DNA from: Flavobacterium sp.
GTDB lineage: Bacteria > Bacteroidota > Bacteroidia > Flavobacteriales > Flavobacteriaceae
DNA length: 64,000 nucleotides
Direction: 5' to 3'
Assembly (NCBI RefSeq): GCF_013823965.1
Contig: NZ_PNNA01000032.1
Location: 62,001 to 126,000, forward strand
Of the stretch, positions 4,700-42,184 are shown one piece after another. Positions within the stretch are counted from its first letter, which is position 1. Every line of letters begins with the position of its first letter. Position numbers and translations under genes: made by a program. The notes below the pieces were generated by a model, which ran no database searches, was not told the origin of the DNA, and saw only the letters and a list, made by a program, of their open reading frames with translations.

Positions 4700-4785
4700 T
4701 AATTATAGTTTTTTTTCAATGAATAGAACGACCAATTAGTTTCAGAACTTTTAATTTCAAATTCCAACAAATCTAAAATCTGCAA

Positions 4786-5022: not shown

Positions 5023-5026
5023 AATT

Positions 5027-5863
5027 TTATTTTTTTAACGATTTCTTTAAAAAGTTGTACCAAGACTCCATTCCTTCGCCCGTGTAAGCTGAAACTTCAA
5101 AAAACAGGAGATTTGGATTCACTTTCTTGGCATAATCCTTCAACTTTTCGATATCGAATTTAAGATAAGGCAATAAATCAATTTTATTGATGATACATAT
5201 TTGTGAGCCATAAAACATGTCGGGATATTTGATCGGTTTATCTTCTCCTTCGGTGATTGAAATTATGACAACCCTTACATTTTCGCCCAAATCAAACATT
5301 GACGGACACACTAAATTACCCACATTTTCAATCATCAACAAGGTTCCGTCCACTGGTGAAAGTTGTTTTACGGCTTTCGAAATCATTTCGCTATCCAGGT
5401 GACATCCTTTGCCCGTGTTGATTTGGATTACGGGAACTTCAAGAGCTGCAATTCTGTCGGCATCGTTTGTGGTTTGCTGGTCGCCTTCAATCACGGCGAA
5501 TGGAATTTCACTTTTTAAATCAGCTATTGTTCTCTCTAATAATGACGTTTTTCCAGAACCTGGAGAACTGACTAAATTGATGGCATAAATGTTCTTGGCC
5601 TCAAAATAACCTTTGTTTCTCTCGGCCAACAAATCGTTTTTGTGCAAGATGTCTTTTTCTAAATCAATTTCCTTGATGTGGCTATGGCTGTGATCATGAT
5701 CGTGGTCGTGATGATGATGTTCGTGATCGTGGTCATGGCTATGGCTATGCACATGAGGTCCATTTCCGTGATCGTGCGAATGAGAATGTTGAACGGTTTT
5801 GCCATCCACTTTTATGATTTTAACTTCATTTTCATCGGAACTGCATCCACAAGTTACACACAT
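5027..5863 (-). CDS. hypB: Hydrogenase nickel-incorporation GTPase HypB with His-rich region
   Basis: A 278-residue SIMIBI GTPase for nickel insertion into the large subunit. It carries the N-terminal high-affinity Ni site (MCVTCGC) and a long His/Asp-rich tract at about residues 24-62, which suggests nickel storage as in Bradyrhizobium-type HypB. Walker A (SSPGSGKT) is near residue 100, ENVGNLVCP carries the G-domain metal-site Cys, and NKIDLLP gives guanine specificity. It sits between hypA (10 bases upstream) and hypC (4 bases downstream). The histidine tract is encoded by repetitive cat/gat codons and makes low-complexity shadows on the other strand. Confidence 0.96.
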   Translation of the reverse strand: MCVTCGCSSDENEVKIIKVDGKTVQHSHSHDHGNGPHVHSHSHDHDHEHHHHDHDHDHSHSHIKEIDLEKDILHKNDLLAERNKGYFEAKNIYAINLVSSPGSGKTSLLERTIADLKSEIPFAVIEGDQQTTNDADRIAALEVPVIQINTGKGCHLDSEMISKAVKQLSPVDGTLLMIENVGNLVCPSMFDLGENVRVVIISITEGEDKPIKYPDMFYGSQICIINKIDLLPYLKFDIEKLKDYAKKVNPNLLFFEVSAYTGEGMESWYNFLKKSLKK

Positions 5864-20800: not shown

Positions 20801-21064
20801 CATCGTGTGAACGTGCTCCACACCTTTGATGTTGGAAATAATTTTTTCCAATGGTTTTGCCACGCGACTTTCGACTTCTGTAGGACTTGCACCTGGATAA
20901 CCTACCATTACGTCGGCCATTGGGACATTGATTTGCGGTTCTTCTTCCCTTGGAATTAGAAACGAACTGTACACGCCAATAATCATCAAGGCTACCATCA
21001 ATAAAATGGTGAGTTTCGAATTGATGAAAAAATGGGCTATTTTACCTGAAATACCTTCTTGCAT
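17840..21064 (-). CDS. RND efflux transporter, inner-membrane pump
   Basis: A 1074-residue AcrB/HAE-like RND protein. The start is set at MQEGISGKIAHFF; 19 extra in-frame codons upstream look like leader sequence. There are two repeats of membrane helices and large periplasmic loops. The VVGIVVDDSIIIAENMHR segment in helix 4 carries the paired Asp residues of the proton relay, the pattern of drug-type pumps more than CzcA-type metal pumps. It works with the adaptor (85 bases upstream in the operon) and TolC. The substrate is unknown. Order on the minus strand: TolC, adaptor, pump, PII-like, DUF2892. Confidence 0.92.
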   Translation of the reverse strand: MQEGISGKIAHFFINSKLTILLMVALMIIGVYSSFLIPREEEPQINVPMADVMVGYPGASPTEVESRVAKPLEKIISNIKGVEHVHTMAMNGQAMLIVQFYVGQDVERSYVKLYDELAKHEDMFPQGVYKPMVKTRSIDDVPMLGLTLWSEKQDDFQLRQIAEEVTSEIEKVKDVAITKEIGGANRGLKVVLDKDKMAENGVDALGIMQMIQANNGSSQSGSFVQNDQEYLITTGQFLSNSEDVENLVVGVNKNMPVYLKQVATVQDGPSTPRSYVSFGYGKANEKFKTAKSEYPAVTISIGKVKGADAMKISEKIIDKVEHLKKNLIPDDVHVEVTRNYGETASDKVGELLLHLGIAIIAVTILVILAMGWRGGLVVFFSVPLTFALTLFAYYLLGYTLNRITLFALVFVVGIVVDDSIIIAENMHRHFKMKRLPFKQAAIYAINEVGNPTILATFTVIAAILPMAFVSGMMGPYMSPMPIGASIAMLLSLFVALTVTPYLGYHLLQEKEEQEHKHEAGMETSWVYKIYNKLERPLLESSAKRKILLAVTVVLLFGSVTMFFTKSVVVKMLPFDNKNEFQVVIDMPEGTTLERTSAVTKEIAQYLSTKPEVVNYQNYIGTSAPITFNGLVRHYDMRGGSNMADIQVNLLHKEERDLQSHDIAKEMRPEIQKIAKKYGANVKLIEVPPGPPVLSTLVAEIYGPNYKDQIKVANQVKTILQNTSDIVDIDWMVEDNQTEYKLEVDKEKAMLNGIAPQQIVGNLTYLLKEYPVSNLYDENSNDNVGIVLSLDDKDKTSLQDIENLKIKGSQGNMIPVSDLVKVVQDTLQKTIYRKDQKRVVYVTADMAGALESPVYAILGMNEKLAKIKLPAGYKVNELYMEQPTDESDFTVKWDGEWQITLEVFRDLGVAFMVVIVIIYMLIVGWFQNFKTPMVMMLAIPLSLIGIVLGHWLLNAYFTATSFIGMIALAGVMVRNSVLLIDFIEIRLNDGVPLKQAIIEAGAVRTTPILLTTGAVVIGASIILFDPIFQGLAISLVAGAIVSTVLTLLVVPLIYYITERKKWETNTDSSEENKEL

Positions 21065-21149
21065 AATTTTATAATTTGAAAATGTGGAAATATGGAAATT
21101 TGAAAATGCTGTATCGCACAAATCATTTTCAAATTTTCAAATTACCTCA

Positions 21150-22229
21150 TTAATTAATTGACACTTTAACTCCGTTATACAATTTGCCGTCAGCCGAGAC
21201 AATATATTGTTCGTTAGCCGACAATCCAGATAAAACCTCTACTTGATTGCCAAAGATTTTTCCAATGCGCAACCATCTTAAAATGGCCACATTTCCTGTT
21301 CCTATCGTATAAATTCCGGTTAACTGTCCTTGTTTTACCAAAGCGTTTTCAGGGACTAAAACCTTGTCGGTTTGAACTGTTTGCGTTTTGTTTTCAACTG
21401 GGAACTGGACGTTGACAAACATTCCTGATAAAATGGAATTGTCGGTTTTGTCTAAATTCACTTTTACCAAATATTGTCCACCCGTATTGGTTGCAGACAA
21501 ACTCACTTCGCTTACTTTTCCGTTTAGCGTTACGTTGGAGGATTTTACCAAAACTTTCACCGTCATTCCTTTTTTGATGGAAGCAATATCATTTTCTGAA
21601 ACCATCGCTGTTACTTGCAATCTTGAAGCTCCTTCCACACTAACTAAGGGCATTCCCGGATTCGCCATATCGCCTTCTTTCACGAAAGTGTTGGTCACCG
21701 TTCCCGAAAATGGAGCCGTGATATTCGAATAGGAAAACTGCGCCAAGACTTCGTTTCGCATTTGTTTGGCGCCTTCCAAGCCGGCTTTCGCCATTTCGTA
21801 ACGAGCCGTCATATCGTCCAATTCTTTTTGGGAAGCCGATTGTTGTTTGAACAAATTCACGAAACGATCGTAGTCTTTTTTGGCATTGTTGTAACCCGCA
21901 GTCGCTTGCAGAATACTGGCGTCTACTTGTGCTTTTTTGGCCAGTAAATCGCTATTGTTGATGCTGACCAACAATTGTCCGGCTCCTACTTTTTGTCCCA
22001 CTTTCACGTGAATTTTGGTCACGTAACCCATCATTCGAGTGCTTAGATTGGCACTGTTTTCGGCTTCGATTTTTCCGCTGGCCGTCACGAACGGGCTGTT
22101 GTTGTTTTCAGAAACACCGCTAACTTTCACTGCTATGGCAGGTTCTTTGATAATTTGTTCTTTTTTGTTTTCTCCACAAGAAGTTAAGAAAACTACTGAT
22201 ATTGAAAGGATTGCTATTATTTTTTTCAT
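21150..22229 (-). CDS. RND periplasmic adaptor (membrane fusion) lipoprotein
   Basis: A 359-residue HlyD/AcrA-type adaptor. The N-terminus MKKIIAILSISVVFLTSCGEN has a lipobox with the acceptor Cys at 18. The barrel-sandwich (lipoyl-like) halves show TKIHVKVGQKVGAGQLL and NITAPFSGTVTNTFVKEGD, with a coiled-coil hairpin between them (about 95-160) and beta-barrel domains after. It bridges the RND pump and the TolC channel. It lies between them in the operon. Confidence 0.92.
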   Translation of the reverse strand: MKKIIAILSISVVFLTSCGENKKEQIIKEPAIAVKVSGVSENNNSPFVTASGKIEAENSANLSTRMMGYVTKIHVKVGQKVGAGQLLVSINNSDLLAKKAQVDASILQATAGYNNAKKDYDRFVNLFKQQSASQKELDDMTARYEMAKAGLEGAKQMRNEVLAQFSYSNITAPFSGTVTNTFVKEGDMANPGMPLVSVEGASRLQVTAMVSENDIASIKKGMTVKVLVKSSNVTLNGKVSEVSLSATNTGGQYLVKVNLDKTDNSILSGMFVNVQFPVENKTQTVQTDKVLVPENALVKQGQLTGIYTIGTGNVAILRWLRIGKIFGNQVEVLSGLSANEQYIVSADGKLYNGVKVSIN

Positions 22230-22285
22230 AGTTGTTATTTTTATTGCATACCTGGCAGGTTTTAAAACCGTTAAGTATAATCCTA

Positions 22286-23599
22286 TTATTTGGTTAAAAA
22301 TTGTAAATATTGTTGGGTAAAATTATATTCGAAAACGGCTTGCAACAACTCCAGTTCTTTTTGGAACATTTGGGTTTCGGTTAGCAATAAATCTGTCGTT
22401 TTTTCAAGACCTTGGCTGAAACGGTTGCTTCTAATTCGGTAAGCTTCTTGTGATTGTTCCAAGGCCAATTTTTCTAGATTTACCTTGTTTTCGGCATCTT
22501 TCAACTGACGATTGATTTTGTTGAGTTCCAGTTGGCTTTGGGATTTGTATTGTTGGTTTTCCACTTCGGCTTTTTGGAAATCGGCTTTGGCTTTTTCCAT
22601 TTTTCCAATGGATTTGTAACCATCGAAAACTTTCCAGGACAATTGTGCACCCACCAAATAACCTTGTGCATTCGTTCCAAAAAGAGTGTCGTCATACATT
22701 TCGTAACTTCCAAAAGCATTCAAAGTAGGCAGGAAATTCATTTTGCTGGATTGATACATTTTGGCATAAGCTTCGGAAGATTTATTCATTGCCAAAATGT
22801 CTTTTCTGTTGCTCGAAACTGTTGTATTTATACTTGAAATGGAAATGGTGTTGTCTAACTCTTCCAGTGGTTTATACACTTTATTCGTATTGTCTTCGTT
22901 GAGAAGAAAAGCCAAATAATCGGAAGCGTTTTGCACATTGCTTTTGGCATATTGCAACTGGTTTTTGATTTCGTTGACACGAACCTGAACCGATAATAAA
23001 TCCGTTTTTTGAAGAATTCCTTGTTTGAAATAATTTTCTACCAGTTTCAAATTGGCATTAGCCGTGGCATTTGCTTTTTCCAAAACTTTTACGGCTTTGT
23101 ACGCCAATTGCAATTGCATAAAGGATTTGTTGACCTCCAATGCTAAATATTCCGTGGTGCGTTCGGTTTGCAATTGATAAGCTTCCATTTTTGATTTGGC
23201 GGCTTGACGTCCGTACAATCCGTCCATATTGATTAAAGGCTGCAACACTTCAATTTTGGTCGCGTAATTTTGGGTTGCGGCAGGATTATTTAGCAATGCC
23301 GGATTAAAATCAGAAGCTGTTAAGACCTCCTGATTTAATTTAGACCCAAAAGCCATCAACGGATTTGTCGTGGAAATGGCAGTGTGCGAAGCCGAAATAC
23401 TGGGCAAAAACAAGGCATTGGATTGTCTGTAATCAGCTTGCGCCGATTTGAATGCCTGATTGGCAATTTGGAGTTGCAGGTTCTTGTCGTTTGCTTTTTG
23501 CCAAATATCATTTTTGGAAATCGTCAAGGTGTCTTGACCAAAACCTAATGTCGAAATGGAAATGGTTCCAAATAGCAATAGTAAATTAATTTTCCTCAT
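22286..23599 (-). CDS. TolC family outer-membrane channel (RND operon)
   Basis: A 437-residue outer-membrane efflux protein. The start is placed at MRKINLLLLFG because it opens directly with a signal peptide ending at GFGQ; 20 upstream in-frame codons lack signal-peptide character. Two repeats of the coiled-coil/beta-barrel unit are visible (conserved NDIWQKANDKNLQLQIA at the front; FSQGLEKTTDLLLTETQ late). It is first in the RND operon. A GTAAC-N4-GTTAC palindrome lies 54 bases upstream of the ATG. Confidence 0.9.
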   Translation of the reverse strand: MRKINLLLLFGTISISTLGFGQDTLTISKNDIWQKANDKNLQLQIANQAFKSAQADYRQSNALFLPSISASHTAISTTNPLMAFGSKLNQEVLTASDFNPALLNNPAATQNYATKIEVLQPLINMDGLYGRQAAKSKMEAYQLQTERTTEYLALEVNKSFMQLQLAYKAVKVLEKANATANANLKLVENYFKQGILQKTDLLSVQVRVNEIKNQLQYAKSNVQNASDYLAFLLNEDNTNKVYKPLEELDNTISISSINTTVSSNRKDILAMNKSSEAYAKMYQSSKMNFLPTLNAFGSYEMYDDTLFGTNAQGYLVGAQLSWKVFDGYKSIGKMEKAKADFQKAEVENQQYKSQSQLELNKINRQLKDAENKVNLEKLALEQSQEAYRIRSNRFSQGLEKTTDLLLTETQMFQKELELLQAVFEYNFTQQYLQFLTK

Positions 23600-23652
23600 A
23601 ATTGTTTTATCTAAATTATGGGCAAAGATATATTCAGCAAAAAAGTTGTTCA

Positions 23653-23666
23653 GTAACAAGTGTTAC
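23653..23666. promoter_or_regulatory. GTAAC-N4-GTTAC palindrome upstream of the RND operon
   Basis: GTAACAAGTGTTAC, perfect 5-bp arms, 54-67 bases before the tolC ATG on the minus strand and about 100 bases before the histidine kinase on the plus strand. The same palindrome occurs at 39675-39688 beside a Crp/Fnr regulator, with a one-mismatch copy at 40468-40481. The width and N4 centre suit a Crp/Fnr-family operator. Confidence 0.6.
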
Positions 23667-31775: not shown

Positions 31776-32672
31776 TTACAAGTCCATAAAAACGTCCTCA
31801 ATTGTTGGTTTTGAAACGCTGATTTCTATTTCGGAATGCTGCTTTTTTTCCAGATAGATTTCCAAATCTTTTGGATTAAAATCGGCATTTTTATCGATAT
31901 AATGAATGAATTCCCCAAAAGCAAAAACACTGTATTGATTCGGATAATTTTTCAAATCCAAAATTAATTGGTGCATATTGTTGGTTCGGACATCATAAAT
32001 TATTTTGTCATAATTTTTGATGATATTTTCGGGAGAATCAATTTTCAGGATATTTCCTTTTTGGATGAGCGCAATTCGTTCGCAGAGCGCAGCCTCGTCC
32101 ATATAAGGCGTGGAAACCAAAATCGTGATGCCTTTTTGCTGCAATCGCTTGAGCATTTCCCAAAATTCTTTGCGCGAAACCGGATCGACTCCCGTGGTGG
32201 GTTCGTCCAGAAACAAGACTTTGGGCTTGTGAATCAAGGCGCAACACAAGGCCAATTTTTGCTTCATCCCACCCGAAAGTGCTCCTGCTCTTCTGGTTTT
32301 GAATGGTTCAATTTGAATGTAAATATCCTTGATCAAATCGTAATTTTCTTCAATTGTTGTTCCAAAAATGGTGGCGAAAAAAGACAAGTTTTCCTCCACG
32401 GATAAATCTTGGTACAAAGAAAATTTTCCAGGCATATACCCTACAGAATTTCTAATAGATTTGTAATCTTTTACCACATCAAAACCGGCAACGGTTGCCG
32501 AGCCTTCATTGGCCAATAAAAGCGTGGTCAAAATCCTAAAAATGGTTGTCTTTCCTGCTCCATCCGGTCCAATCAATCCAAACAGCTCCCCTTCTTTTAC
32601 ATCAAAAGAAATGGCTTCAACAGCTTTGATTTTGTTGTAGGATTTGGAGATGTTTTGGACGGTTATACTCAT
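31776..32672 (-). CDS. ABC transporter ATP-binding protein
   Basis: A 298-residue ATPase with Walker A GPDGAGKTT, Q-loop GYMPGKFSLYQD, intact signature LSGGMKQKL, Walker B VLFLDEPTTGVDP and a C-terminal extension (about 215-298) ending EDVFMDL, typical of drug-efflux ABC-2 systems. It lies 17 bases after the adaptor gene. With the second ATPase and the two permeases it makes a full exporter. Confidence 0.92.
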   Translation of the reverse strand: MSITVQNISKSYNKIKAVEAISFDVKEGELFGLIGPDGAGKTTIFRILTTLLLANEGSATVAGFDVVKDYKSIRNSVGYMPGKFSLYQDLSVEENLSFFATIFGTTIEENYDLIKDIYIQIEPFKTRRAGALSGGMKQKLALCCALIHKPKVLFLDEPTTGVDPVSRKEFWEMLKRLQQKGITILVSTPYMDEAALCERIALIQKGNILKIDSPENIIKNYDKIIYDVRTNNMHQLILDLKNYPNQYSVFAFGEFIHYIDKNADFNPKDLEIYLEKKQHSEIEISVSKPTIEDVFMDL

Positions 32673-32689
32673 ATTTTTTTTTCTAATCT

Positions 32690-33565
32690 CTATTTAATCC
32701 ACATTTCGGCAGGCATTCCTGTTTTTAAACTGCCATCATTTTTTACTTTCACTTTTACGGCATAAACCAAATTTACCCTTTCTTCCTTGGTTTGGACAAT
32801 TTTCGGAGTGAATTCTGCCGAAGAGGCAATCCAAGAAATGGTTCCGGGAAAGGATTTCATTTCTTTTTCGGCATCTATTTTTACGGTTACTTTTTGACCC
32901 ATTTTTATGTTTGATAATTGGGTTTCGCTCACATAAACCCGAAGCGTCATTTCTGAAATATCGGCTATTTTGTAGATGGGTTTCCCGAAAGCGGTTACTT
33001 CGTTTGGCTCTGCATATTTGGCTAAAACTGTTCCTTTCATTGGGTTGATGATTTTGCTTTTCTCGATTTGGTCGTTAATTTTTTCAATCTGGAAATCGAT
33101 GGATTTTGCTTCGTTGACGATGGGCGCATTTTGGGTTTGCACGCTTTTTATTTGCTCTTGAATGACGCTTACTTTTCCGTCAATTTCATCCACTTGACGT
33201 TTGGTTGCGGCATTTTCGGCAAACATGTTTTGGATTCTTTTTTTCTCGATTTGTGCCGTTTTCAGTTGTTCCTGCAACACTTTAATTTGCGACAGAACAT
33301 TGGCCGATTTGGAATAAACGGTACTTTTTGAAGCCAATAATTGTTGTTTGTTGAAATGCAATTGGGTTGTGTTGATCAAACCAACTTGGTTATTGGGTTC
33401 CAAAATATCGCCTTCTTCAAGTTTTAAATATTCGATTTTCCCGTTTGCTTCCGCCGAAATGGTAATTTCTGTTGCTTCAAAATTCCCGTAACCATCGGCT
33501 TTGTCGTTGTTTTTGGTGCAGGAGATTAGGCTTGCAAGCATTAAGATTGGGATTATTTTTTTCAT
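32690..33565 (-). CDS. HlyD/YbhG-type adaptor lipoprotein of the ABC efflux system
   Basis: A 291-residue periplasmic adaptor. The start at MKKIIPILMLASLISC (33565) places a lipobox Cys at residue 16; 32 upstream in-frame codons overlap the previous gene and lack signal features. A short lipoyl half (EYLKLEEGDILEPNNQVG), a long coiled coil (about 70-165) and the second half (INPMKGTVLAKYAEPNEV) follow. It joins the ABC permeases to the TolC encoded 13 bases upstream. Confidence 0.9.
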   Translation of the reverse strand: MKKIIPILMLASLISCTKNNDKADGYGNFEATEITISAEANGKIEYLKLEEGDILEPNNQVGLINTTQLHFNKQQLLASKSTVYSKSANVLSQIKVLQEQLKTAQIEKKRIQNMFAENAATKRQVDEIDGKVSVIQEQIKSVQTQNAPIVNEAKSIDFQIEKINDQIEKSKIINPMKGTVLAKYAEPNEVTAFGKPIYKIADISEMTLRVYVSETQLSNIKMGQKVTVKIDAEKEMKSFPGTISWIASSAEFTPKIVQTKEERVNLVYAVKVKVKNDGSLKTGMPAEMWIK

Positions 33566-33578
33566 GTTTCTTCTATTT

Positions 33579-34823
33579 TTAGTTTCCTTTAATAACTTGA
33601 TAATTTGCCTTGGCCAAAGCCAATTGAATTTCGTGTAACTTTTGATTGGTTCGCGCTTCAAATAAATTCGTGAATTCCACCAAATATTCGGAAGTGGTTA
33701 TCACACCGTTTTTCAATTGAGAATTGGCCGATTTTTCGACATATTCTCTTAAACCAATAATTGCTGTATCGGTTTTGATGATTTCTTCTGTTTTTTTTAT
33801 TTCGTTCTCCATTTCCTGCAATTGCAAGGAATTGTTGAGTAAAAAAGTTTCTTTTTCAGTGGCGACAATATCGGCTGAAACCGTCAATGCGTCTTTTTCG
33901 GCTTTGGATTTGTTCCAATCAAAAACATTCCAATTGGCTCTCAATCCCACCATAAAAATGGGTTGATACGAATTATCGACCATATTCAATCCGGGATTTC
34001 CATAACCAGCAATCCCGAAAGCATTTATTTTTGGTAAATTATTTTTAGAGATAACCATTTTCGAAGCTTCAATTTGCTGGTTTTGCAATTCGAAATATTT
34101 CAATTCCGGCCGATTTTTTGCCGTGTTTTCTTCCGTGATTATTGTTGGTTTTTGCAAAACACTGGTTTCAGGAATCGTCGTATAAGTCAAGGACGAAAGA
34201 TTTTCGAACAAGCGTTTTTGATCGAAATGAATTTCAGAAAGTTGTTGTTTTATTTTCAAATTCTCGGCTTCCAATACTTTTTCGGAAGCAGGAAGAATGG
34301 CTCCAAATTTGATTCCAGCATTGACTTCTTTTATTTTGGAAACCAATTGTTCTTGTTTGTAAATCAGGATTTCTTTTCGCTCCTGCAATAGTAAAATTGA
34401 GAAATACAACTGGTTGATTCTGGTCTTGATTTGGTATAAATTGACTTCAACTTGTTGTTGTTGGGTTTTGGTTTGCGCCTCTTTCAGCTTGGTGTTGGCA
34501 TCAATCAATCCGCCATTATAAATGAGTTGGTTGACATCAAAATTAGCTCGATATTGGTCTTTGTTTAACGGTTCGAGAACTGGATTTGGAATCATGGTCA
34601 CTTGATTTTGGTAGCTTCCTTGGGCAACCAAATCTATTTTGGGAAGTTTGCCGGTTTGCAATGCATCTACTTCGTAATCAGATTTTTGCTGCAACAATCC
34701 AATTTGTTTGGCTATGGGATAATTTTTATTGGCCAAAGCATAACACTCTTCCAAGGTCAATGATTGCTGTGCATTGGAAAAAAATGCAGCCAATAAAAAG
34801 GATATGATTAATATTCGTTTCAT
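33579..34823 (-). CDS. TolC family outer-membrane protein (ABC efflux operon)
   Basis: A 414-residue outer-membrane channel with signal peptide [19 protein letters not shown] and the TolC-type start [19 protein letters not shown]. Two coiled-coil repeats are visible. Its start overlaps the end of the tetR gene by 4 bases, indicating coupled translation. It is distinct from the TolC of the RND operon at 22286-23599. Confidence 0.9.
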
Positions 34824-35413
34824 CTTTTTATGGAATTTATAATTTGTTCGGCAATGCTGGTTTTTCGTTCTTCCATCATTTGATTGAATTCTGCATCCGA
34901 AATTTGCAACATTCCTTTGGCCAATATCTGTGCGGCAAAAGGAAAAACGGTCATCGAAAAAACATCCATCAAAAGCTGTTTTGGATTGACGGGTTTAATG
35001 ATTCCGTCGGCGATTTCTTTTTCGATTTGAGTAATCAGCAAGGTGGGATTGGGTCTGTTTTCATTGTTTAAAAAGGACATGACAAACGCTGGATTGTTGT
35101 TCATTTCCTGGATTATAAATTGCGGTAAATAGGGATTATGAATTACAAATGAAATGTAGCTGTGCGTGAATTTCTTGATTTTATCAAAAACACTTTCTCC
35201 AGATGTGAAGATTTCTTTGATTTGTGGTGCCAATTGACTGAATGCATTCATGAAAACGGCTTCAAAAAGTAATTGTTTGTTCTTGAAACAATAATGTAGC
35301 ATTGCTTTGTTGATACCTGCTTCATCTGCTATTTCCTGCATTCTGGCTCCTGCGAATCCTTTCTTTTGGAATACAATTCGAGCAGCATTGAATATTTTTT
35401 CTTCAGTTGTCAT
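34820..35413 (-). CDS. TetR/AcrR-family repressor of the ABC efflux operon
   Basis: A 197-residue regulator. The N-terminal HTH (about 8-53) includes [24 protein letters not shown] and [18 protein letters not shown]; the rest is a helical ligand domain. It is the first gene of the operon, like cecR (ybiH) before ybhGFSR in E. coli. A 16-bp palindrome 20 bases before the ATG is the likely operator, giving autorepression. The ligand is unknown. Confidence 0.92.
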
Positions 35414-35501: not shown

Positions 35502-36092
35502 TTATTTTTTTTGAAATTCGATAAACAATTCAGAATTGGCTCTTGGCGCAATTGAATTGTGGCAATTCTCCATAATTTTAAAGTCGAAATAATCTTTAAA
35601 TAATTGCTCATATTCGATTTGGGTTCCACCAAAAGGAGGTCCAGAATCAAAAATTTTATTGAACAACAATCCAACTAATTTTCCTTTTTCTGTCAAAAGT
35701 TGGTACATTTTCGACACATATTCTTCACGTATTAAGGGTGGCAAGGCACAGAAAAAAGTTTGCTCAATAATCAAATCATAACTTCCTTGATGCTCAAAGA
35801 AATCACCTAAAACAATGCTTATATTGGTGTTGTCTTTGAATTTTTTTTGGAGATTTTTTACTAATGTTGGTGCTATATCTATCACGGTAACATTGGTAAA
35901 GCCTTGTTCCAATAGATATTCTGCTTCATAAGTATTGCCGCAACCTGGAATCAAAATGTTGATGTGCTTGTCCTTTAAATTGTCCACATATTTTTTTATT
36001 GGTGGAGAAACTTGGCCTAAATCCCAACCAGTTGCATTGGATATGTATTGTTTGTCCCAATATTCTTGATCCAATATTTTTTCACTATTCAT
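35502..36092 (-). CDS. TPMT/HOL-type thiol S-methyltransferase family protein
   Basis: A 196-residue SAM-dependent methyltransferase of the thiopurine methyltransferase superfamily. The start at MNSEKILDQEYW (36092) is preferred to one eight codons upstream. Motifs: YWDKQY...TGWDLGQVSPP, SAM-binding ILIPGCGNTYEAEYL, YDLIIEQTFFCALPP, GPPFGG and ENCHNSIAPR. Relatives methylate thiols, thiopurines, bisulfide, halides or selenium. Its start overlaps the end of the DUF202 gene by 8 bases at the end of a persulfide-handling operon, so a sulfide or thiol substrate is a reasonable inference. The SAM methyltransferase call is firm; the substrate is not shown. Confidence 0.85.
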   Translation of the reverse strand: MNSEKILDQEYWDKQYISNATGWDLGQVSPPIKKYVDNLKDKHINILIPGCGNTYEAEYLLEQGFTNVTVIDIAPTLVKNLQKKFKDNTNISIVLGDFFEHQGSYDLIIEQTFFCALPPLIREEYVSKMYQLLTEKGKLVGLLFNKIFDSGPPFGGTQIEYEQLFKDYFDFKIMENCHNSIAPRANSELFIEFQKK

Positions 36093-36384
36093 AATATTCC
36101 ATTTTATAATCGCCAACGTGTTTTTCGTTTTCTAAAATCATTTTCTTGTGCTTGAAATAGTTGAACACGCCAATTAAAAAAAGGACGAACGAACTGGTGA
36201 AAAAAAAAATTCAATGGCAAAACTGAGTTCTACTTTTAACAAACCTTCCAAACTTAAAGCTGCTATAAAAAATACATCGAAGTTCGCAGAAATGCCAAAA
36301 AAGTCGATTGATTGCCAAAATTGTTCTTTGCATAGCCAATCGTTCTCTTAAAATAAGGTCTTTATTTAGAGACTTTTCAATCAT
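36085..36384 (-). pseudogene. DUF202 membrane protein with three homopolymer frameshifts
   Basis: The minus strand from ATG 36384 begins MIEKSLNKDLILRERLAMQRT, the start of DUF202 (YidH-like) proteins. It then needs three single-base insertions to stay open: one after TILA (A run near 36320), one after the TSMY segment (run of six T, near 36270) and one at a run of ten (36200-36209). With these restored the product is 100 residues with helices FLAFLRTSMYFFIAALSLEG and a second one ending LIGVFNYFKHKK. The stop is at 36085-36087. All three lesions shorten homopolymers, so sequencing error is as likely as true decay. Its ends overlap both neighbours, as intact operon genes do. Confidence 0.75.
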
Positions 36385-36590
36385 TTATTCTTTTTTTTTC
36401 GTGTAGAAAGTCCAAAAGGCAAATACAAAGGACAAAAACTGATAAAACTGGTTGCTACCATTACTGTTGCCAAAATACCTAAAACTAATGCCAATGTGCC
36501 TTCAACTGTTTTGGTGTAAAACAAAACGGCAACTACAAGAGCAAATAGAATACGAATAATTTTGTCTGTTGAACCCATGTTTTTTTTCAT
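36381..36590 (-). CDS. DUF2892 small membrane protein (sulfur operon)
   Basis: A 69-residue protein with the DUF2892 pattern: N-terminal GSTDKIIRILFALVVAVLF helix, a second helix (about 32-50) ending at FCPLYLPFGLSTR. This domain is fused to rhodanese in YgaP, which fits a persulfide context. It overlaps the DUF202 start by 4 bases and lies 26 bases after the DUF6132 gene. An alternative start four codons in is possible. Confidence 0.85.
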   Translation of the reverse strand: MKKNMGSTDKIIRILFALVVAVLFYTKTVEGTLALVLGILATVMVATSFISFCPLYLPFGLSTRKKKNK

Positions 36591-36616
36591 GATTTTCGAA
36601 TTTTGTTGGTTAATTA

Positions 36617-36814
36617 TTAAAGTTTTTTTGGTGATTTCACGAACATGTTAAATAGTAAACCTCCCATTAATGCTCCATACAAAGTGCTGTTTAAAGGTTT
36701 TGAGGTTATGGCACAAGTTCCTGTAACACAGCCTACATAATAGTAGTAAAGATAGCCTGCGATGGCACCAATTATAATTCCTGTTGCCGTGATAATAATT
36801 GCTTTCTTGCTCAT
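36617..36814 (-). CDS. DUF6132 family small membrane protein
   Basis: A 65-residue protein with two hydrophobic segments and a central GCVTGTCAITS, giving two closely spaced cysteines on one side of the membrane. I recognise it as the Bacteroidota DUF6132 family, which often sits with thioredoxin and rhodanese genes. It shares one base with the thioredoxin stop. A role in thiol or sulfur relay is inferred from the cysteines and neighbours. Confidence 0.75.
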   Translation of the reverse strand: MSKKAIIITATGIIIGAIAGYLYYYYVGCVTGTCAITSKPLNSTLYGALMGGLLFNMFVKSPKKL

Positions 36815-37116
36815 TAGTTGCTTTTTTCAACAATGGTTTTTATGATTTCATCTTTGGTCAAAACACCGGATTGTCTCCATAACTGTTTTCCATTTTGAAA
36901 CAAAATCATTGTTGGAACACCGCGAACTTGGTATTTTGATGATAACTGCTGGTTTTTATCCACATCGATTTTTAGTATGGTAATGCGTTCTCCCAAACTG
37001 TCTTTTACCTCTTTTAAAACGGGAGCCAGCATCTTGCAAGGACCACACCAAGTGGCAAAAAAATCAATCAAAACCGGTTTTTCCGATTGGATAATATTTT
37101 CGAAACTATTGCTCAT
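36814..37116 (-). CDS. Thioredoxin
   Basis: A 100-residue thioredoxin with the WCGPC active site (residues about 24-28) and the cis-Pro in VRGVPTMILF. No signal peptide is seen, so it is cytoplasmic. It overlaps the upstream 67-residue membrane protein by 4 bases. In this operon it probably reduces persulfides or the rhodanese cysteines formed by the neighbouring enzymes. Confidence 0.93.
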   Translation of the reverse strand: MSNSFENIIQSEKPVLIDFFATWCGPCKMLAPVLKEVKDSLGERITILKIDVDKNQQLSSKYQVRGVPTMILFQNGKQLWRQSGVLTKDEIIKTIVEKSN

Positions 37117-37316
37117 TTTTTAGAATATTTATTGTTGGGAATGGCGCAACCATTTGGCCCACAGCCTAAATTAAAAATCGCTTGAAATAAAAAAAATAAA
37201 CCGAAAGCAATAAAAAACCATTCATGGGTAGTGTAAGCTTGAACGAACAAAAACAAGGCAAATGCCAATCTAACCCAACGCATGGCGTGCCAATTTGTAA
37301 AAAGTATTTGTTTCAT
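37113..37316 (-). CDS. Small membrane protein with CGPNGC tail
   Basis: A 67-residue protein with two hydrophobic segments (about 14-28 and 31-48) and a C-terminal CGPNGC motif. It resembles the small membrane partners found beside sulfur-transfer genes in Bacteroidota, but I cannot name a family with certainty. It starts 1 base after the dioxygenase-rhodanese gene and overlaps thioredoxin by 4 bases. Confidence 0.7.
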   Translation of the reverse strand: MKQILFTNWHAMRWVRLAFALFLFVQAYTTHEWFFIAFGLFFLFQAIFNLGCGPNGCAIPNNKYSKK

Positions 37317-37317
37317 T

Positions 37318-38742
37318 CTATTTCAATGTTGACGGACAAACATAATTTGTCGTTTTTATGGATGTTTTTTTGATGGCTGCAAATCCGCCTGCCACGTTAA
37401 TTACGTTGTGATACCCTCTTGCTTTTAATATGGAAGCCGCAATCATGGAACGATAGCCACCGGCACAATGCAAATAGAATTCTTCTTCTTTTGGGAATTC
37501 GGCTAAATGGTCGTTAATATTATCCAATGGTGTTGATGGGACGTCAGCTATATGTTCAGCAGAATATTCACCGTCTTTTCTAACATCAAAAATGATTACT
37601 TTTTCTTTCTCCTCTTCTGCCTCTTCCAATATTTCTTCCAGCATTGGAGCCGAAACGGAACTGACAGTGTCGTATTCCAATCCTTCATTTTTCCAAGTGT
37701 CAAATCCACCTTTTAGATACCCCAAGGTATTGTCGTAACCCACTCTTGCCAAACGAATTATACTTTCCTCTTCCCTGCCCAATGGCGTTATTAATAGTAA
37801 AGGTTGCTTGATGTCTGGAATTAAAGCACCAACCCAAGGAGCAAAATCGCCATCGATACCTATGAAAATAGATTTTGGAATATGTCCTTTTGCATAATCA
37901 TCTTGATGACGAACGTCCAGAATTACGGTGTCGATTTCATTGGCAACCATTTCAAAAGTCTCGGCATCATAAGCTACAGCGTCCCTGATAATGTCTTCCA
38001 CATTTTCATAACCCTCTTTATTGAGTTTTACGTTCAACGGAAAATATACTGGCGGAGGCAACAATCCATCCGTAACTTCCTTGATGAATTCGTCTTTGGT
38101 CATGTTGGCACGAAGCGCATAATTGATCTGCTTTTGTTCCCCAATGGAACCTATTGTTTCCTTGCTCAAATTCTTGCCACAAGCACTTCCTGCACCATGC
38201 GCTGGATAAACAATCACGTCATCGGCCAAGGTCATTACCTTGTTTCGCAAACTATCGAATAAAATTCCGGCTAGTTGTTCCTTGGTCATGTTAGCCACTT
38301 TTTGGGCTAAATCAGGACGACCAACATCGCCTAAAAATAAGGTGTCACCACTAAAAAGTGCATAATCCTTTCCATCTTTGTCTTTCAAAAGATAACAGGA
38401 ACTTTCCAAGGTGTGTCCCGGCGTATGTAAAACGGTTATCGTAATTTCTCCCAATTGAAAAACTTCGCCATCAGTGGCAATATGTGCTTTAAATTTTGGC
38501 TCTGCCGTAGGACCATATATGATTGGAGCACCCGTTTTCTCGGCTAACGTGACATGTCCACTTACAAAATCAGCGTGGAAATGGGTTTCAAAAATATATT
38601 TGATTTTAGCTTTTGCGTTAGTGGCTTTATCAATGTAAGGCTGCACTTCTCGCAATGGATCTATAATGGCAACTTCTCCATTACTTTCAATATAATATGC
38701 ACCTTGCGCTAAACAACCCGTATAAATTTGTTCTATTTTCAT
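37318..38742 (-). CDS. Persulfide dioxygenase-rhodanese fusion (CstB-like)
   Basis: A 474-residue protein. The N-terminal metallo-beta-lactamase domain (about 1-250) has the ETHFHADFVSGH metal motif at 52-63 and FSGDTLFLGDVGRPDL, as in ETHE1/CstB persulfide dioxygenases. Two rhodanese domains follow: the first (about 260-355) lacks the catalytic Cys, the second (about 375-474) has HCAGGYRS. The expected reaction is oxidation of a low-molecular-weight persulfide to sulfite or thiosulfate. It is second in the leftward operon after the TSUP transporter, which could export the product. Confidence 0.92.
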   Translation of the reverse strand: MKIEQIYTGCLAQGAYYIESNGEVAIIDPLREVQPYIDKATNAKAKIKYIFETHFHADFVSGHVTLAEKTGAPIIYGPTAEPKFKAHIATDGEVFQLGEITITVLHTPGHTLESSCYLLKDKDGKDYALFSGDTLFLGDVGRPDLAQKVANMTKEQLAGILFDSLRNKVMTLADDVIVYPAHGAGSACGKNLSKETIGSIGEQKQINYALRANMTKDEFIKEVTDGLLPPPVYFPLNVKLNKEGYENVEDIIRDAVAYDAETFEMVANEIDTVILDVRHQDDYAKGHIPKSIFIGIDGDFAPWVGALIPDIKQPLLLITPLGREEESIIRLARVGYDNTLGYLKGGFDTWKNEGLEYDTVSSVSAPMLEEILEEAEEEKEKVIIFDVRKDGEYSAEHIADVPSTPLDNINDHLAEFPKEEEFYLHCAGGYRSMIAASILKARGYHNVINVAGGFAAIKKTSIKTTNYVCPSTLK

Positions 38743-38821
38743 GTTTCAAAGTGTATTTATAATGTAAATTTATTTATTTTTTTAAACAAGACCGTATTTT
38801 GAGTTAGATTTTAGGAAATTA

Positions 38822-39625
38822 TTATGACCAAAAAAGTTCCCTAATAATGATATAAATTCCCATTCCGAGCACAAACCACCCAAAACTGTTTTTGAGTTTT
38901 TCGTCTTCTACTTTTTTGGAGATGAAATTTCCAATAAAAATCCCAACTATTGATGCTAAAGTAAAGAAAAATAATAACATCCAGTCAATGATTTGATTTC
39001 CCATAATATCGCCCATAAATCCAATCAATGATTGTAGTGAAACGATAAAAAGAGAGGTACCAACAGCCATTTTCATGGGCGTTTTTGCAAAGAACAACAA
39101 AGTGGGAACTATCAAAAAACCACCTCCTGCTCCAACAAATCCTGAAAGTAGTCCAATAAAAATTCCCAGAAAAATAATTTTATAATAATTGAGTTTTTCA
39201 CCCTCATGAACAATTCTCTCTTTCAAAGGTTTTATCATTTGAATTGATGCAAAAATCATCACGAAGGCAAAAACCACCATAATTAAGATGGACTTGCTCA
39301 AAGTGAAATTTTCTGTCGAAAAAATAATATCGGGTATCCTGGGAACAAGAATTTTTCGCGTGACAAAAACCGAAATTACCGCTGGAATTCCAAACAAAAA
39401 TACCTTATTGAAATCAACTAATTTTTGTTTGGCCTTGTGAATTCCGCCAACGAATGAAGTTGTGCCAATCACAAATAAAGAATAGGCCGTCGCCAATGTT
39501 GGTTCTATGCTCATGACATACACCAAAATAGGCACGGAAAGTATGGAGCCGCCACTTCCCAACATTCCGAGTGTCATACCTACAAAAACCGCCAGAACAT
39601 AACCAATTATTTGAGATATTTCCAT
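38822..39625 (-). CDS. TSUP (TauE/SafE) family sulfite/sulfur-compound transporter
   Basis: A 267-residue integral membrane protein with about eight helices and the duplicated TSUP motif (GMLGSGGSILSVPILVY and GFVGAGGGFLIVPTLLFF). TSUP members export sulfite or import thiosulfate. It is the first gene of the leftward sulfur operon, 79 bases before the dioxygenase-rhodanese gene, which favours sulfite export. A GTAAC-N4-GTTAC palindrome lies 50 bases upstream of its ATG. Confidence 0.92.
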   Translation of the reverse strand: MEISQIIGYVLAVFVGMTLGMLGSGGSILSVPILVYVMSIEPTLATAYSLFVIGTTSFVGGIHKAKQKLVDFNKVFLFGIPAVISVFVTRKILVPRIPDIIFSTENFTLSKSILIMVVFAFVMIFASIQMIKPLKERIVHEGEKLNYYKIIFLGIFIGLLSGFVGAGGGFLIVPTLLFFAKTPMKMAVGTSLFIVSLQSLIGFMGDIMGNQIIDWMLLFFFTLASIVGIFIGNFISKKVEDEKLKNSFGWFVLGMGIYIIIRELFWS

Positions 39626-39674
39626 TTATAAAAATTTTTGATTACAAAAATAAGGGTATTTTCATCCCATTTCT

Positions 39675-39688
39675 GTAACAAATGTTAC
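39675..39688. promoter_or_regulatory. GTAAC-N4-GTTAC palindrome before the TSUP operon
   Basis: GTAACAAATGTTAC, perfect arms, in the 64-base gap between the Crp/Fnr gene and the TSUP ATG. This is the best candidate binding site for the adjacent regulator. It is the same palindrome as at 23653-23666. Confidence 0.65.
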
Positions 39689-39689
39689 C

Positions 39690-40319
39690 TCATTTCAACA
39701 ATACTATCGAAGACCTGTTGAGTTTAATTTTCCCATTGTTTTCCAATGCTTTCAACAAGCGGGAAATCACGACTCTCGAAGTATGCAAGTCATACGCAAT
39801 TTCTTGATGGGTGTTGTGAATTTCATTGGTATTATTAATTTTTACTTTCTCGTTGAGATAGTTTAACAATCGTTCGTCCATATTCATAAAAGCAAGATTG
39901 TCAATGGCGGACAGCATTTCTTTTAAACGATTGTTGTAACTGTTAAAAACAAAGTTTCTCCAGCTTTTGTATTTACCCAACCATTCTTCCATTTTGATTA
40001 TGGGAATCATTACGACAGTTCCTTTGGTTTCGGCCACAGCTCGAATTTCGCTTTTGGTTTCGCCTAAACAGCAAGCCATCGTCATGGCACAAGTGTCGCC
40101 TTTTTCTATAAAATACAACAGTAATTCGCCTTCGTCAAAATCTTCTCGCAATATCTTGATGGCTCCAGAAATCAACAACGGCATTTTCCTTATGGAATCA
40201 CCAAAATCGATCAGGATGTCGCCTTCTTTGAAATCCCTCAGCAAAGAAGATTCGGCTATTTCATCAATCAATTTATCTTCAAATATATAACCGTAAGTTT
40301 GCTTGATTAGTTCTTTCAT
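39690..40319 (-). CDS. Crp/Fnr-family regulator with cysteine-bearing sensor domain
   Basis: A 209-residue regulator: cNMP-binding-type beta-barrel (about 25-120), dimer helix (about 125-155) and C-terminal winged HTH with HQEIAYDLHTSRVVISRLLKALE. The barrel holds C77, C83 and C84 (CAMTMACC). It lacks the N-terminal cysteine cluster that binds Fe-S in FNR. Flanking sulfur genes and the vicinal cysteines suggest thiol or persulfide sensing; a different ligand is possible. It lies between the TSUP operon and the divergent disulfide reductase, each with a GTAAC-type site. Confidence 0.9.
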   Translation of the reverse strand: MKELIKQTYGYIFEDKLIDEIAESSLLRDFKEGDILIDFGDSIRKMPLLISGAIKILREDFDEGELLLYFIEKGDTCAMTMACCLGETKSEIRAVAETKGTVVMIPIIKMEEWLGKYKSWRNFVFNSYNNRLKEMLSAIDNLAFMNMDERLLNYLNEKVKINNTNEIHNTHQEIAYDLHTSRVVISRLLKALENNGKIKLNRSSIVLLK

Positions 40320-40467
40320 TGCTGTTAATTCTTTAATAAGTCGTAAATTTCGCTAAAAAAAATTAACTTTAAACATAAATATGTAAAACAGTTTGTCGAA
40401 GTTTTTGCAATGTATATGTACCGCATTTTGGCAACACACATTTTTTAGTTCAAACATTTGATTTTAT

Positions 40468-40481
40468 GTAACAAAAGCTAC
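40468..40481. promoter_or_regulatory. GTAAC-type site before the CoA-disulfide reductase gene
   Basis: GTAACAAAAGCTAC, one mismatch from the perfect palindrome, 63-76 bases upstream of the ATG at 40544. The position matches the other two copies relative to their genes. Confidence 0.55.
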
Positions 40482-40543
40482 AAACTTTTACGTTGTGTTT
40501 TCTCAAATTTGTACCATAATTAAATACAAGAAATACTCTAAAC

Positions 40544-42184
40544 ATGAAAATACTTATTATAGGTGGAGTTGCCGGTGGCGCAACTGCAGCAGCAAGATTA
40601 AGAAGATTGAGCGAAGAAAATGAAATTATCATTTTTGAAAAAGGAGAACATGTTAGTTTTGCAAACTGTGGCCTGCCCTATCATATTGGCGGTGTAATCG
40701 TGGAACGCTCCAAATTATTGTTGAACACACCCACATCTTTAAAAACAAGATTCAACTTGGATGTGCGCATTTTTAATGAAGTTTTAAAAATAAACAATAA
40801 AGAAAAAACGGTCGAAGTTAGAAACGTGATTACGAATGAAATTTACATCGAAACTTACGATACATTATTATTGTCTCCAGGCGCAGAACCCTTCAGACCC
40901 AACATTCCCGGGATTGATTCCAACAAAATAATGACGCTTCGAAATGTTGCCGATATGGACAGAATCATTGCCAAGACTAAAAATTTGAAAAATATTGCCG
41001 TTGTCGGCGGTGGTTTCATTGGCTTGGAAGTAGCTGAAAATCTGGTTGAAAAAGGACTCAATGTCACTGTTATCGAGTTGGGAAACCAAGTGATGGCTCC
41101 AGTGGATTATGAATTTGCCAAAATGGTACAACATCACGCTGTTGCCAAAAATCTAAATATTCTCGTAAACACGGGCGTTGAAGCTTTTGAAGACAAAAAC
41201 AATGAAATCGAATTAAAACTAAATAACGGCGGCACTATTTTGGCTGATGCAGTTGTGTTTGCCATTGGAGTAAAACCCGAAAACGCTTTGGCAAAATCAG
41301 CTGGACTGGAGTTGGGCGTCACCGGCGGAATTGCCGTAAACGAGTTTATGCAAACTTCTGACCCCAATATTTATGCAGTGGGCGATGCAGTTGAAGTTGC
41401 ACATTTCATCAATCAGGCAAAAGTGTTGATTCCGCTTGCTTGGCCAGCCAATCGTCAAGGTAGAATTGTGGCCGATAATATCACTAGAGGAAATAAAATA
41501 TCGAATAAAGGAACTTTGGGAACTTCGATTATAAAATTCTTTGACTTGACCGTTGGTGCCACTGGACTTAACGAAAAACTATTGAAACGCTACAATATTC
41601 CGTATCGAACCGTAACGGTTACCAGAGCCAATCACGCCAGTTATTATCCTGGAGCCACGAATATTGTCTTGAAAATGAATTTTGGAGAAGATGGAACCAT
41701 TTATGGCGCACAAGCCTTGGGACAAGAAGGAGTCGACAAAAGAATTGACGTAATTGCAACGGCCATAAAAGGAAATTTGACAATTCATGATTTGCAAGAA
41801 ATTGAAGTGGCTTATGCTCCACCTTATAATTCCGCCAAAGACCCCGTAAACATTCTAGGTTACGTTGCCGAAAATATGTTGAACGACGATGTACGATTCG
41901 TCAATTACGACCAATTAGTCGAGTATCTTTCGACCGAAAATGCCATTCTGATTGATGTGAGAACCAAAAAAGAATTCGAAAACGGCGCGATTCCAAATGC
42001 CATAAACATGGATGTGGATACTTTGAGAGAAAATCTGGATTTCTTTGACAAGAATAAAAAATATGTGATTTACTGCCAGATTGGTTTAAGAGGTTATTTG
42101 GCTCAACGAATTTTGAGAAACAACAACATCTATTCCGTGAATTTGAATGGCGGTTACGGACTTTGGAAACCCGTGAATAGTTAA
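40544..42184 (+). CDS. CoA-disulfide/persulfide reductase with C-terminal rhodanese domain
   Basis: A 546-residue flavoprotein. The FAD-binding GGVAGGATAAARLRR starts at residue 7, redox-active Cys42 lies in FANCGLPYH, NAD(P)H-binding VVGGGFIGLEVAEN is near residue 150, and a dimerisation domain is at about 325-440. A rhodanese domain (about 455-546) carries Cys511 in YCQIGLRG. This is the architecture of CoADR-Rhd/NADH persulfide reductases, which reduce CoA persulfide or polysulfide to sulfide. It is transcribed away from the Crp/Fnr gene and ends in a strong terminator. Confidence 0.93.
   Translation: MKILIIGGVAGGATAAARLRRLSEENEIIIFEKGEHVSFANCGLPYHIGGVIVERSKLLLNTPTSLKTRFNLDVRIFNEVLKINNKEKTVEVRNVITNEIYIETYDTLLLSPGAEPFRPNIPGIDSNKIMTLRNVADMDRIIAKTKNLKNIAVVGGGFIGLEVAENLVEKGLNVTVIELGNQVMAPVDYEFAKMVQHHAVAKNLNILVNTGVEAFEDKNNEIELKLNNGGTILADAVVFAIGVKPENALAKSAGLELGVTGGIAVNEFMQTSDPNIYAVGDAVEVAHFINQAKVLIPLAWPANRQGRIVADNITRGNKISNKGTLGTSIIKFFDLTVGATGLNEKLLKRYNIPYRTVTVTRANHASYYPGATNIVLKMNFGEDGTIYGAQALGQEGVDKRIDVIATAIKGNLTIHDLQEIEVAYAPPYNSAKDPVNILGYVAENMLNDDVRFVNYDQLVEYLSTENAILIDVRTKKEFENGAIPNAINMDVDTLRENLDFFDKNKKYVIYCQIGLRGYLAQRILRNNNIYSVNLNGGYGLWKPVNS

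What the first reader, a model, noticed from the sequence alone, without database searches (positions are those of the whole stretch)
35502..42184. Persulfide-detoxification island combining export, oxidation, reduction and methylation
One leftward operon holds TSUP, dioxygenase-rhodanese, a CGPNGC membrane protein, thioredoxin, DUF6132, DUF2892, DUF202 and a TPMT/HOL-type methyltransferase, with a divergent CoADR-rhodanese. Overlaps of 1-8 bases tie together most of the genes downstream of the dioxygenase-rhodanese. The mix of four cysteine-bearing or small membrane proteins with a thiol methyltransferase is not a pathway I know, and it could turn sulfide into sulfite, thiosulfate and methylated sulfur in one unit.
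Basis: partly seen in the sequence, partly recalled or inferred. Interest (0 to 1): 0.8.

Follow-up and report, generated by a model that had tools for sequence, protein, structure and literature searches.

The report
Sulfide-detox operon with methylation arm
In a Flavobacterium-like genome, genes predicted to oxidise, export and reduce toxic sulfur (persulfides and sulfide) are followed in the same run by a methyltransferase that likely methylates these sulfur species into volatile compounds; the same partners recur in dozens of related genomes, often behind a conserved DNA palindrome that is probably the shared switch, so methylation may be an overlooked branch of bacterial sulfide defence.

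Summary
The set is real but patchy: 57 of the 80 closest methyltransferase loci carry the dioxygenase-rhodanese (PDO) within 6 kb on the same strand; without that selection 10 of 32 full-length TPMT hits in the genome and 60 relatives are linked, and at least 5 of 30 in a phylum-wide draw. Best reading: a CstB/CoA-persulfide-reductase-type persulfide detoxification unit (oxidation, export, reduction) with an added methylation exit by a halide/thiol-methyltransferase-like enzyme. New here: a palindrome GTAAC-N4-GTTAC, 35-80 nt before TSUP and PDO in half of the named loci, also before the genome's SQR and double-rhodanese operons, and a Crp/Fnr protein with invariant Cys77 and near-invariant Cys83 where cAMP receptors bind the ligand phosphate: a likely new persulfide sensor. 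Substrate, sensing and volatile product are predictions. Novelty: new variant of a known kind.

The parts
40544..42184 (+). CoA-disulfide/persulfide reductase with C-terminal rhodanese (Cys42, Cys511), divergent
   Evidence: best PDB relatives 3icr (617.6 bits) and, sixth, 8a56 CoA-persulfide reductase (525 bits); Cys positions
40468..40481 (.). palindrome GTAAC-N4-GTTAC with 1 mismatch, 62 nt before the CoADR start codon: predicted operator
   Evidence: a 1-mismatch site before CoADR also in L106, L107, L142
39690..40319 (-). Crp/Fnr regulator with C77-x5-C83-C84 at the cyclic-nucleotide phosphate site: predicted persulfide sensor
   Evidence: C77 in 61 of 61 and C83 in 92% of the 61 aligned CRPs
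39675..39688 (.). exact palindrome GTAACAAATGTTAC, 49 nt before the TSUP start codon: predicted operator
38822..39625 (-). TauE/SafE (TSUP) exporter, predicted sulfite/thiosulfate export
   Evidence: PF01925 139.5 bits
37318..38742 (-). MBL - degenerate rhodanese - rhodanese protein, CstB-like persulfide dioxygenase/sulfurtransferase (PDO)
   Evidence: (3tp9 225.9 bits; 3r2u 183.3 bits, residues 3-457); Cys188 and Cys426
37113..37316 (-). 67-aa membrane protein with GCGPNGC (C52, C57)
   Evidence: C52 and C57 in 31 of 31 aligned homologues over a score cut
36814..37116 (-). thioredoxin, WCGPC
   Evidence: TIGR01068 117.1 bits over cut-off 96.8; Cys24/27 in 51 of 51 aligned
36617..36814 (-). 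DUF6132 membrane protein with GCVTGTC (C29, C34)
   Evidence: PF19628 33.2 bits; both Cys in 31 of 31 aligned
36381..36590 (-). YgaP-like TM protein (PF11127, formerly DUF2892), Cys53
   Evidence: 74.9 bits; Cys53 in 34 of 35 aligned
36085..36384 (-). DUF202 gene remnant, frame broken twice in this assembly; intact in some relatives
35502..36092 (-). TPMT-superfamily methyltransferase, halide/thiol-methyltransferase-like, predicted to methylate persulfide/HS-

Best explanation
The island is a predicted persulfide and sulfide detoxification unit in which a likely thiol-based Crp/Fnr sensor, acting on a conserved GTAAC-N4-GTTAC palindrome, would switch on predicted oxidation (CstB-like PDO-rhodanese), export (TSUP), reduction (CoADR-rhodanese, thioredoxin, cysteine-pair membrane proteins) and a probable methylation exit (halide/thiol-methyltransferase-like TPMT). 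Shown: gene content, order and overlaps; recurrence of the methyltransferase beside PDO; the palindrome and its spacing; conserved cysteines; the predicted fold class of the methyltransferase. Inferred: SQR, encoded elsewhere in the genome behind the same palindrome, makes low-molecular-weight persulfides from sulfide; PDO turns them into sulfite/thiosulfate, which TSUP exports; CoADR and thioredoxin return sulfane sulfur as HS-; the GCxxxxC and GCxxxxC-type (GCGPNGC, GCVTGTC) membrane proteins relay thiol electrons or persulfides; and the methyltransferase caps R-SS-, HSS- or HS- with a methyl group from SAM, giving methyl persulfides or methanethiol that leave by diffusion. Methylation would be the O2-independent exit when the dioxygenase cannot work.
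Against: The 80 loci are the best of at least 583 and include near-duplicates, so are biased to close kin; in an even draw of 198 phylum genomes TPMT was found in 30 and lies beside PDO in 5 (window included; one PDO match of G149 is not listed, so at least 5), while PDO occurs in 121. The 11 other-TPMT loci without PDO (L074-L084) had been picked as unlinked by coordinates, so they are no independent control. Two of the 57 (L152, L161) have only a distant PDO type (241 and 260 bits). In 28 of 80 loci TPMT carries an HMA-like CxxC tail, which hints at a soft metal or metalloid as well as at a sulfur carrier. Fold rank beyond 8ajp does not separate thiol enzymes: 3lcc (22.6), the heterocyclic toxin methyltransferase 7bgg (22.4) and human TPMT 2bzg (21.3) are close. 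Arg152 of human TPMT, needed for persulfide methylation (PMC13089183), could not be aligned residue by residue; the motif here reads EQTFF with invariant Gln111. The palindrome is missing at this stringency from half of the TSUP and PDO promoters, from the window's own PDO start, and is rare before the CRP gene (5 of 60) and the divergent single rhodanese (1 of 33).
Confidence: 0.6

Rival explanations
1. Persulfide detoxification as above, but the methyltransferase handles selenium, tellurium or another soft element that enters the same thiol chemistry (Se/Te-type TPMT), the HMA tail of relatives delivering it.
For: TPMT-HMA fusions with CxxC in 28 of 80 loci; the NCBIfam model TIGR03840 is named TMPT_Se_Te and is the best NCBIfam hit; the mammalian enzyme also methylates selenite-derived anions (PMC13089183, section heading).
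Confidence: 0.15
2. Cyanide/thiocyanate unit: rhodaneses convert cyanide and sulfane sulfur to thiocyanate and the HOL-like methyltransferase volatilises thiocyanate or halide.
For: Rhodanese domains are numerous; the nearest folds are halide methyltransferases, a class known to take thiocyanate (recalled).
Against: The rhodaneses are fused to a persulfide-dioxygenase-type protein and to CoADR, and the palindrome links the set to SQR and DsrC/DsrE2; no cyanide gene was recognised among the island's families.
Confidence: 0.07
3. The methyltransferase and small membrane genes are passengers on the 3' side of an ordinary CRP-TSUP-PDO unit, kept by read-through.
For: Patchy: 9 of 36 same-genus genomes; close PDO homologues L085, L087, L088 lack it.
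Against: Same partners in at least two gene orders and in records titled Sphingobacteriales, Daejeonella, Solitalea, Chitinophagaceae and Cytophagaceae, several of them MAGs; 1-8-base overlaps; linked loci cluster on the tree yet need about 11 changes, i.e. repeated gain or loss of the same linkage.
Confidence: 0.15

Closest known systems
Staphylococcus aureus cst operon (tauE, cstA, cstB, sqr under CstR)
   Same: TauE plus an MBL-rhodanese-rhodanese protein; chain 3r2u (CstB by recall; named metallo-beta-lactamase family protein) matches over residues 3-457; that operon is sulfide-induced (PMC5480029, passages)
   Different: Here a Crp/Fnr protein instead of CstR, no CstA-like gene recognised, SQR in a separate operon, and added thioredoxin, cysteine-pair membrane proteins and methyltransferase
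Bacillus licheniformis yrkD-pdo cluster
   Same: RHOD, PDO, TauE and thioredoxin genes in one co-transcribed cluster for sulfide and sulfane sulfur removal (PMC9918477, passages)
   Different: CstR-like YrkD and NreBC regulators, SQR inside; 'methyltransferase' does not occur in that paper's main text
Mammalian TPMT as reactive-sulfur methyltransferase
   Same: Same Pfam superfamily and fold class; methylates polysulfides, GSS- and HS- and protects cells (PMC13089183, abstract, part of Results, passages)
   Different: Eukaryotic enzyme outside any operon; its Arg152 region was not aligned residue by residue with EQTFF here
Halide/thiol methyltransferases (HMT, HOL1, TMT1)
   Same: Nearest solved fold and shared TFFCA-type motif
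   Different: 30% identity to the best one; their absence from persulfide operons is my recall, not a search
MddA / MddH / MddM1 / MddM2
   Same: Bacterial SAM-dependent methylation of H2S and MeSH seen as detoxification, with H2S/MeSH-enhanced transcription (PMC12904073, passages)
   Different: MddA is membrane-associated; MddH and MddM2 are called UbiE family and MddM1 UbiG family there; 'TPMT', 'thiopurine' and 'Bacteroid' do not occur in its main text

Membership tests
cst-type persulfide detoxification operon | CstB-like MBL + degenerate rhodanese + active rhodanese | tested here: met
   matches to 3tp9 and 3r2u over residues 3-457; HFHADF, HTPGHT, GDTLFLGD, Cys188, Cys426, no Cys in the middle rhodanese loop
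cst-type persulfide detoxification operon | TauE/TSUP exporter in the operon | tested here: met
   PF01925 139.5 bits
cst-type persulfide detoxification operon | CsoR-family CstR regulator | tested here: not met
   regulator is Crp/Fnr, PF00027 + PF13545
cst-type persulfide detoxification operon | SQR in the same operon | tested here: not met
   SQR at G000:C17:42932-44161, not in the island
CoA-persulfide reductase (CoAPR) | CoADR core with active Cys plus C-terminal rhodanese Cys | tested here: met
   Cys42 and Cys511; 8a56 525 bits over residues 2-544; CoADR equivalog TIGR03385 523 bits, under its cut-off of 578.8
TPMT superfamily (PF05724) | score over Pfam gathering cut-off | tested here: met
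   105.5 against 26 bits
Bacterial Se/Te thiopurine methyltransferase (TIGR03840) | score over equivalog cut-off | tested here: not met
   63.3 against 223.2 bits
Halide/thiol methyltransferase | fold and TFFCA-type motif | tested here: met
Halide/thiol methyltransferase | SAM-dependent methylation of HS-, SCN- or halide | not testable with these tools
   needs enzyme assay
MddA/MddH/MddM | sequence membership of those families | not tested
   their sequences were not at hand
Thiol-based persulfide sensors | conserved cysteine pair in the regulator | tested here: met
   C77 61/61, C83 92%
Thiol-based persulfide sensors | reaction of the cysteines with persulfide and change in DNA binding | not testable with these tools
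   needs biochemistry

The most novel reading that the evidence does not exclude
Bacteroidota run sulfide and persulfide defence through a new class of sensor, a Crp/Fnr protein whose cyclic-nucleotide site has become a C-x5-C persulfide switch reading GTAAC-N4-GTTAC, and couple oxidation and reduction with SAM-dependent methylation of RSS-/HS- by a dedicated halide/thiol-methyltransferase-like enzyme (often fused to an HMA-like CxxC carrier), making flavobacteria an unrecognised source of methanethiol and methylated persulfides.
Probability: 0.4. Interest if true: 0.78.

Novelty: new variant of a known kind. Interest (0 to 1): 0.6.

Why it matters
Reactive-sulfur removal is usually described as oxidation; a methylation branch by TPMT was reported in mammals in 2026 (PMC13089183), and the bacterial H2S-methylating enzymes I found in print are the Mdd enzymes (PMC12904073). 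A recurring Bacteroidota operon that places a methyltransferase beside a persulfide dioxygenase would give that branch a bacterial genetic context, point to a new source of volatile sulfur, and offer a testable Crp/Fnr persulfide sensor with a candidate operator already defined.

Tried and rejected
Reading the whole set as one fixed operon: rejected, since the exact order is limited to few relatives and two main orders exist. Reading TPMT as a Te/Se enzyme by name: the equivalog test failed. Assuming linkage for all TPMT homologues: rejected by the phylum draw (at least 5 of 30) and (10 of 32). Using L074-L084 as a control for linkage: dropped, because I had chosen those 11 loci as unlinked from the coordinates. 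Exact palindrome in 15 genomes: 1-9 sites per genome, against 1-21 for the reversed control pattern; many sites have G/C-rich centres that look like chance, and I did not annotate all of their neighbours, so the operator claim rests on spacing and controls and on the window's genome, where the site at C70 lies inside a TonB/ExbD-like region and is probably chance. No site with one mismatch or less precedes PDO in the window itself. Literature: searches (persulfide dioxygenase + Flavobacterium + operon + rhodanese; TPMT + rhodanese + Flavobacterium) gave no paper; one search gave three, one relevant, judged from their listings only, showed no Crp/Fnr persulfide sensor. 'Not found in print' means only these searches of an open-licence library. 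No viral contigs, padloc or phrogs search was made, since nothing suggested a mobile element; no homologous-protein search was made.
Full report
WHAT IS THERE. The minus-strand run Crp/Fnr (39690-40319), TauE/TSUP (38822-39625), MBL-rhodanese-rhodanese (37318-38742), GCGPNGC membrane protein (37113-37316), thioredoxin (36814-37116), DUF6132 (36617-36814), YgaP-like TM (36381-36590), DUF202 remnant (36085-36384) and TPMT-family methyltransferase (35502-36092) is confirmed, with a divergent CoADR-rhodanese at 40544-42184. From PDO on, the junctions are a 1-nt spacer, overlaps of 4 and 1, a 26-nt gap, and overlaps of 4 and 8. DUF202 is not an open frame: the first 57 codons hit no family, and intact relatives align to 36384-36088 in one frame across a stop, with a middle part in another frame.

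IS IT MORE THAN CHANCE. Unselected: a TPMT family search of the window's genome and 60 relatives gave 32 full-length hits (67 bits or more), of which 10 lie beside a PDO-type gene on the same contig (window; G007, G010, G017, G019, G027, G029, G030, G036; G031 by a PDO fragment), i.e. 9 of 36 same-genus and 0 of 23 same-order genomes besides the window. PDO lies within 6 kb on the same strand in 57 of 80; by score band 24 of 26, 15 of 20, 11 of 15 and 7 of 19. Two of the 57 (L152, L161) hold only a distant PDO type. Within 6 kb and on the same strand, thioredoxin is found in 48, TSUP 39, CRP 38, DUF6132 30, YgaP-like TM 30, DUF202 9. PDO, thioredoxin and a GCGPNGC-type protein occur together in 41 of 80. 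These 80 are the closest and hold near-duplicates. In an even draw of 198 phylum genomes the profile found 30 (window included) and PDO occurs in 121; adjacent places are seen in G000, G199, G126, G211 and G075, at least 5 of 30 since the PDO list is cut. Eleven loci of unlinked methyltransferases (L074-L084), picked as unlinked beforehand, hold none of the other island genes either. A quick tree of 92 rows shows linked loci clustered (14 label changes against a shuffled mean of 27.6), with the window inside a group of 41 rows of which 39 are linked and 2 unknown; that fork has support 83 and the deep forks are weak.

TWO ARCHITECTURES. The window's order with the CoADR-rhodanese divergent recurs in L106, L107 and L142, and without CoADR in view in L109, L134 and L138; DUF202 was found only in L138 and L142 of these six. 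More Flavobacterium loci have a single rhodanese divergent, then CRP, TSUP, PDO, YgaP-like TM, (DUF202), methyltransferase often fused to an HMA-like CxxC tail, GCGPNGC, thioredoxin, DUF6132. The HMA tail scores 20.4, 26.5 and 23.3 bits in the three fused proteins tested against a cut-off of 24.8 and is seen in 28 of 80 loci. In PDO-linked loci, within 6 kb of the methyltransferase, there recur an aldehyde dehydrogenase (16 loci) and CydA and CydB (11 each), mostly on the opposite strand, a type III SQR (7) and a split Sulf_transp (YeeE/YedE-type) pair (6) (one representative each named).

REGULATION. A palindrome GTAAC-N4-GTTAC lies 49 nt before the TSUP start codon (39675-39688), and with one mismatch 62 nt before CoADR (40468-40481). 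In the 80 named loci a site with at most one mismatch lies 35-80 nt before TSUP in 20 of 40 and before PDO in 27 of 54 genes that could be examined; of the sites found within 300 nt, 20 of 22 for TSUP and 26 of 33 for PDO fall at 40-59 nt. On the larger, partly redundant set: TSUP 28 of 62, PDO 43 of 82, CoADR 3 of 4, CRP 5 of 60, single rhodanese 1 of 33, TetR 1 of 16, methyltransferase 0 of 100, thioredoxin 0 of 63, other ORFs of 200 aa or more 18 of 847; six control palindromes gave at most 5 of 82. The window's genome holds only 5 exact sites (control, pattern read backwards: 21): TSUP; upstream of a FadL-like/SQR/DsrC/DsrE2 run (about 215 nt before the first start); upstream of a rhodanese-rhodanese-GCCGSNGC run (92 nt); an RND trio at window 23653; and one probably by chance. 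The regulator is Crp/Fnr; C77 is invariant in 61 of 61 and C83 present in 92%. In the alignments to Vfr and NtcA the CAMTMACC stretch stands in the region of Vfr's FFGELGLF, which binds the cAMP phosphate (recalled). The best PDB relative, 3dv8, also has C-x5-C there. Hence the predicted dithiol persulfide sensor; CstR, SqrR and FisR are the kinds described in the review passages I saw (PMC9774590).

HOW IT LIKELY WORKS. Sulfide is oxidised to persulfides by SQR (separate operon, same palindrome); persulfides modify the Crp/Fnr dithiol, which changes transcription at the palindromes; PDO oxidises them to sulfite/thiosulfate for TSUP; CoADR, thioredoxin and the membrane thiol proteins return reduced sulfur; the methyltransferase removes RSS-, HSS- or HS- as methyl persulfide or methanethiol. 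Only anatomy, conservation and predicted fold are shown; each activity is inferred. Support for the methylation step is indirect: mammalian TPMT does it, with persulfides far better than HS- at pH 6.8 (PMC13089183: abstract, first part of Results, passages), and bacterial Mdd enzymes methylate H2S and MeSH as proposed detoxification (PMC12904073, passages).

VERDICT. A real, recurring but patchy module and not a chance neighbourhood; the core is a known kind (persulfide detoxification of cst/CoAPR type), the methylation arm and the Crp/Fnr-palindrome control are new variants that I did not find in the searches made.

Noticed in passing
window 17840-23666 (-): RND efflux trio (OEP, HlyD_D23, ACR_tran) with an exact GTAACAAGTGTTAC about 53 nt before the likely start at 23599, close to the spacing at TSUP and PDO; may belong to the regulon.
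   Followed up: partly
L193 (G000:C17:41000-48000): FadL-like porin, type III SQR (70% to L157), DsrC-like and DsrE2-like genes in one run behind an exact palindrome.
   Followed up: partly
L194 (G000:C74) 4572-5526: Two single rhodaneses and a GCCGSNGC membrane protein behind an exact palindrome.
   Followed up: partly
L065, L067-L071, L108 and others: Methyltransferase fused to a C-terminal HMA-like domain with CxxC (28 of 80 loci); N-terminal CCVVSC in many of the aligned ones.
   Followed up: partly
window 31776-35413 (-): TetR, outer-membrane factor, HlyD and ABC exporter genes beside the island are also found next to it in about a dozen relatives.
   Followed up: no
L108 4298-5878, L109 4696-7107: Aldehyde dehydrogenase (16 loci) and cytochrome bd genes (11 loci) recur beside PDO-linked islands.
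   Followed up: partly
L135, L141, L163, L164, L174: A second, distant PDO-type protein (about 190-240 bits) beside the full PDO; L152 and L161 hold only such a distant type.
   Followed up: no
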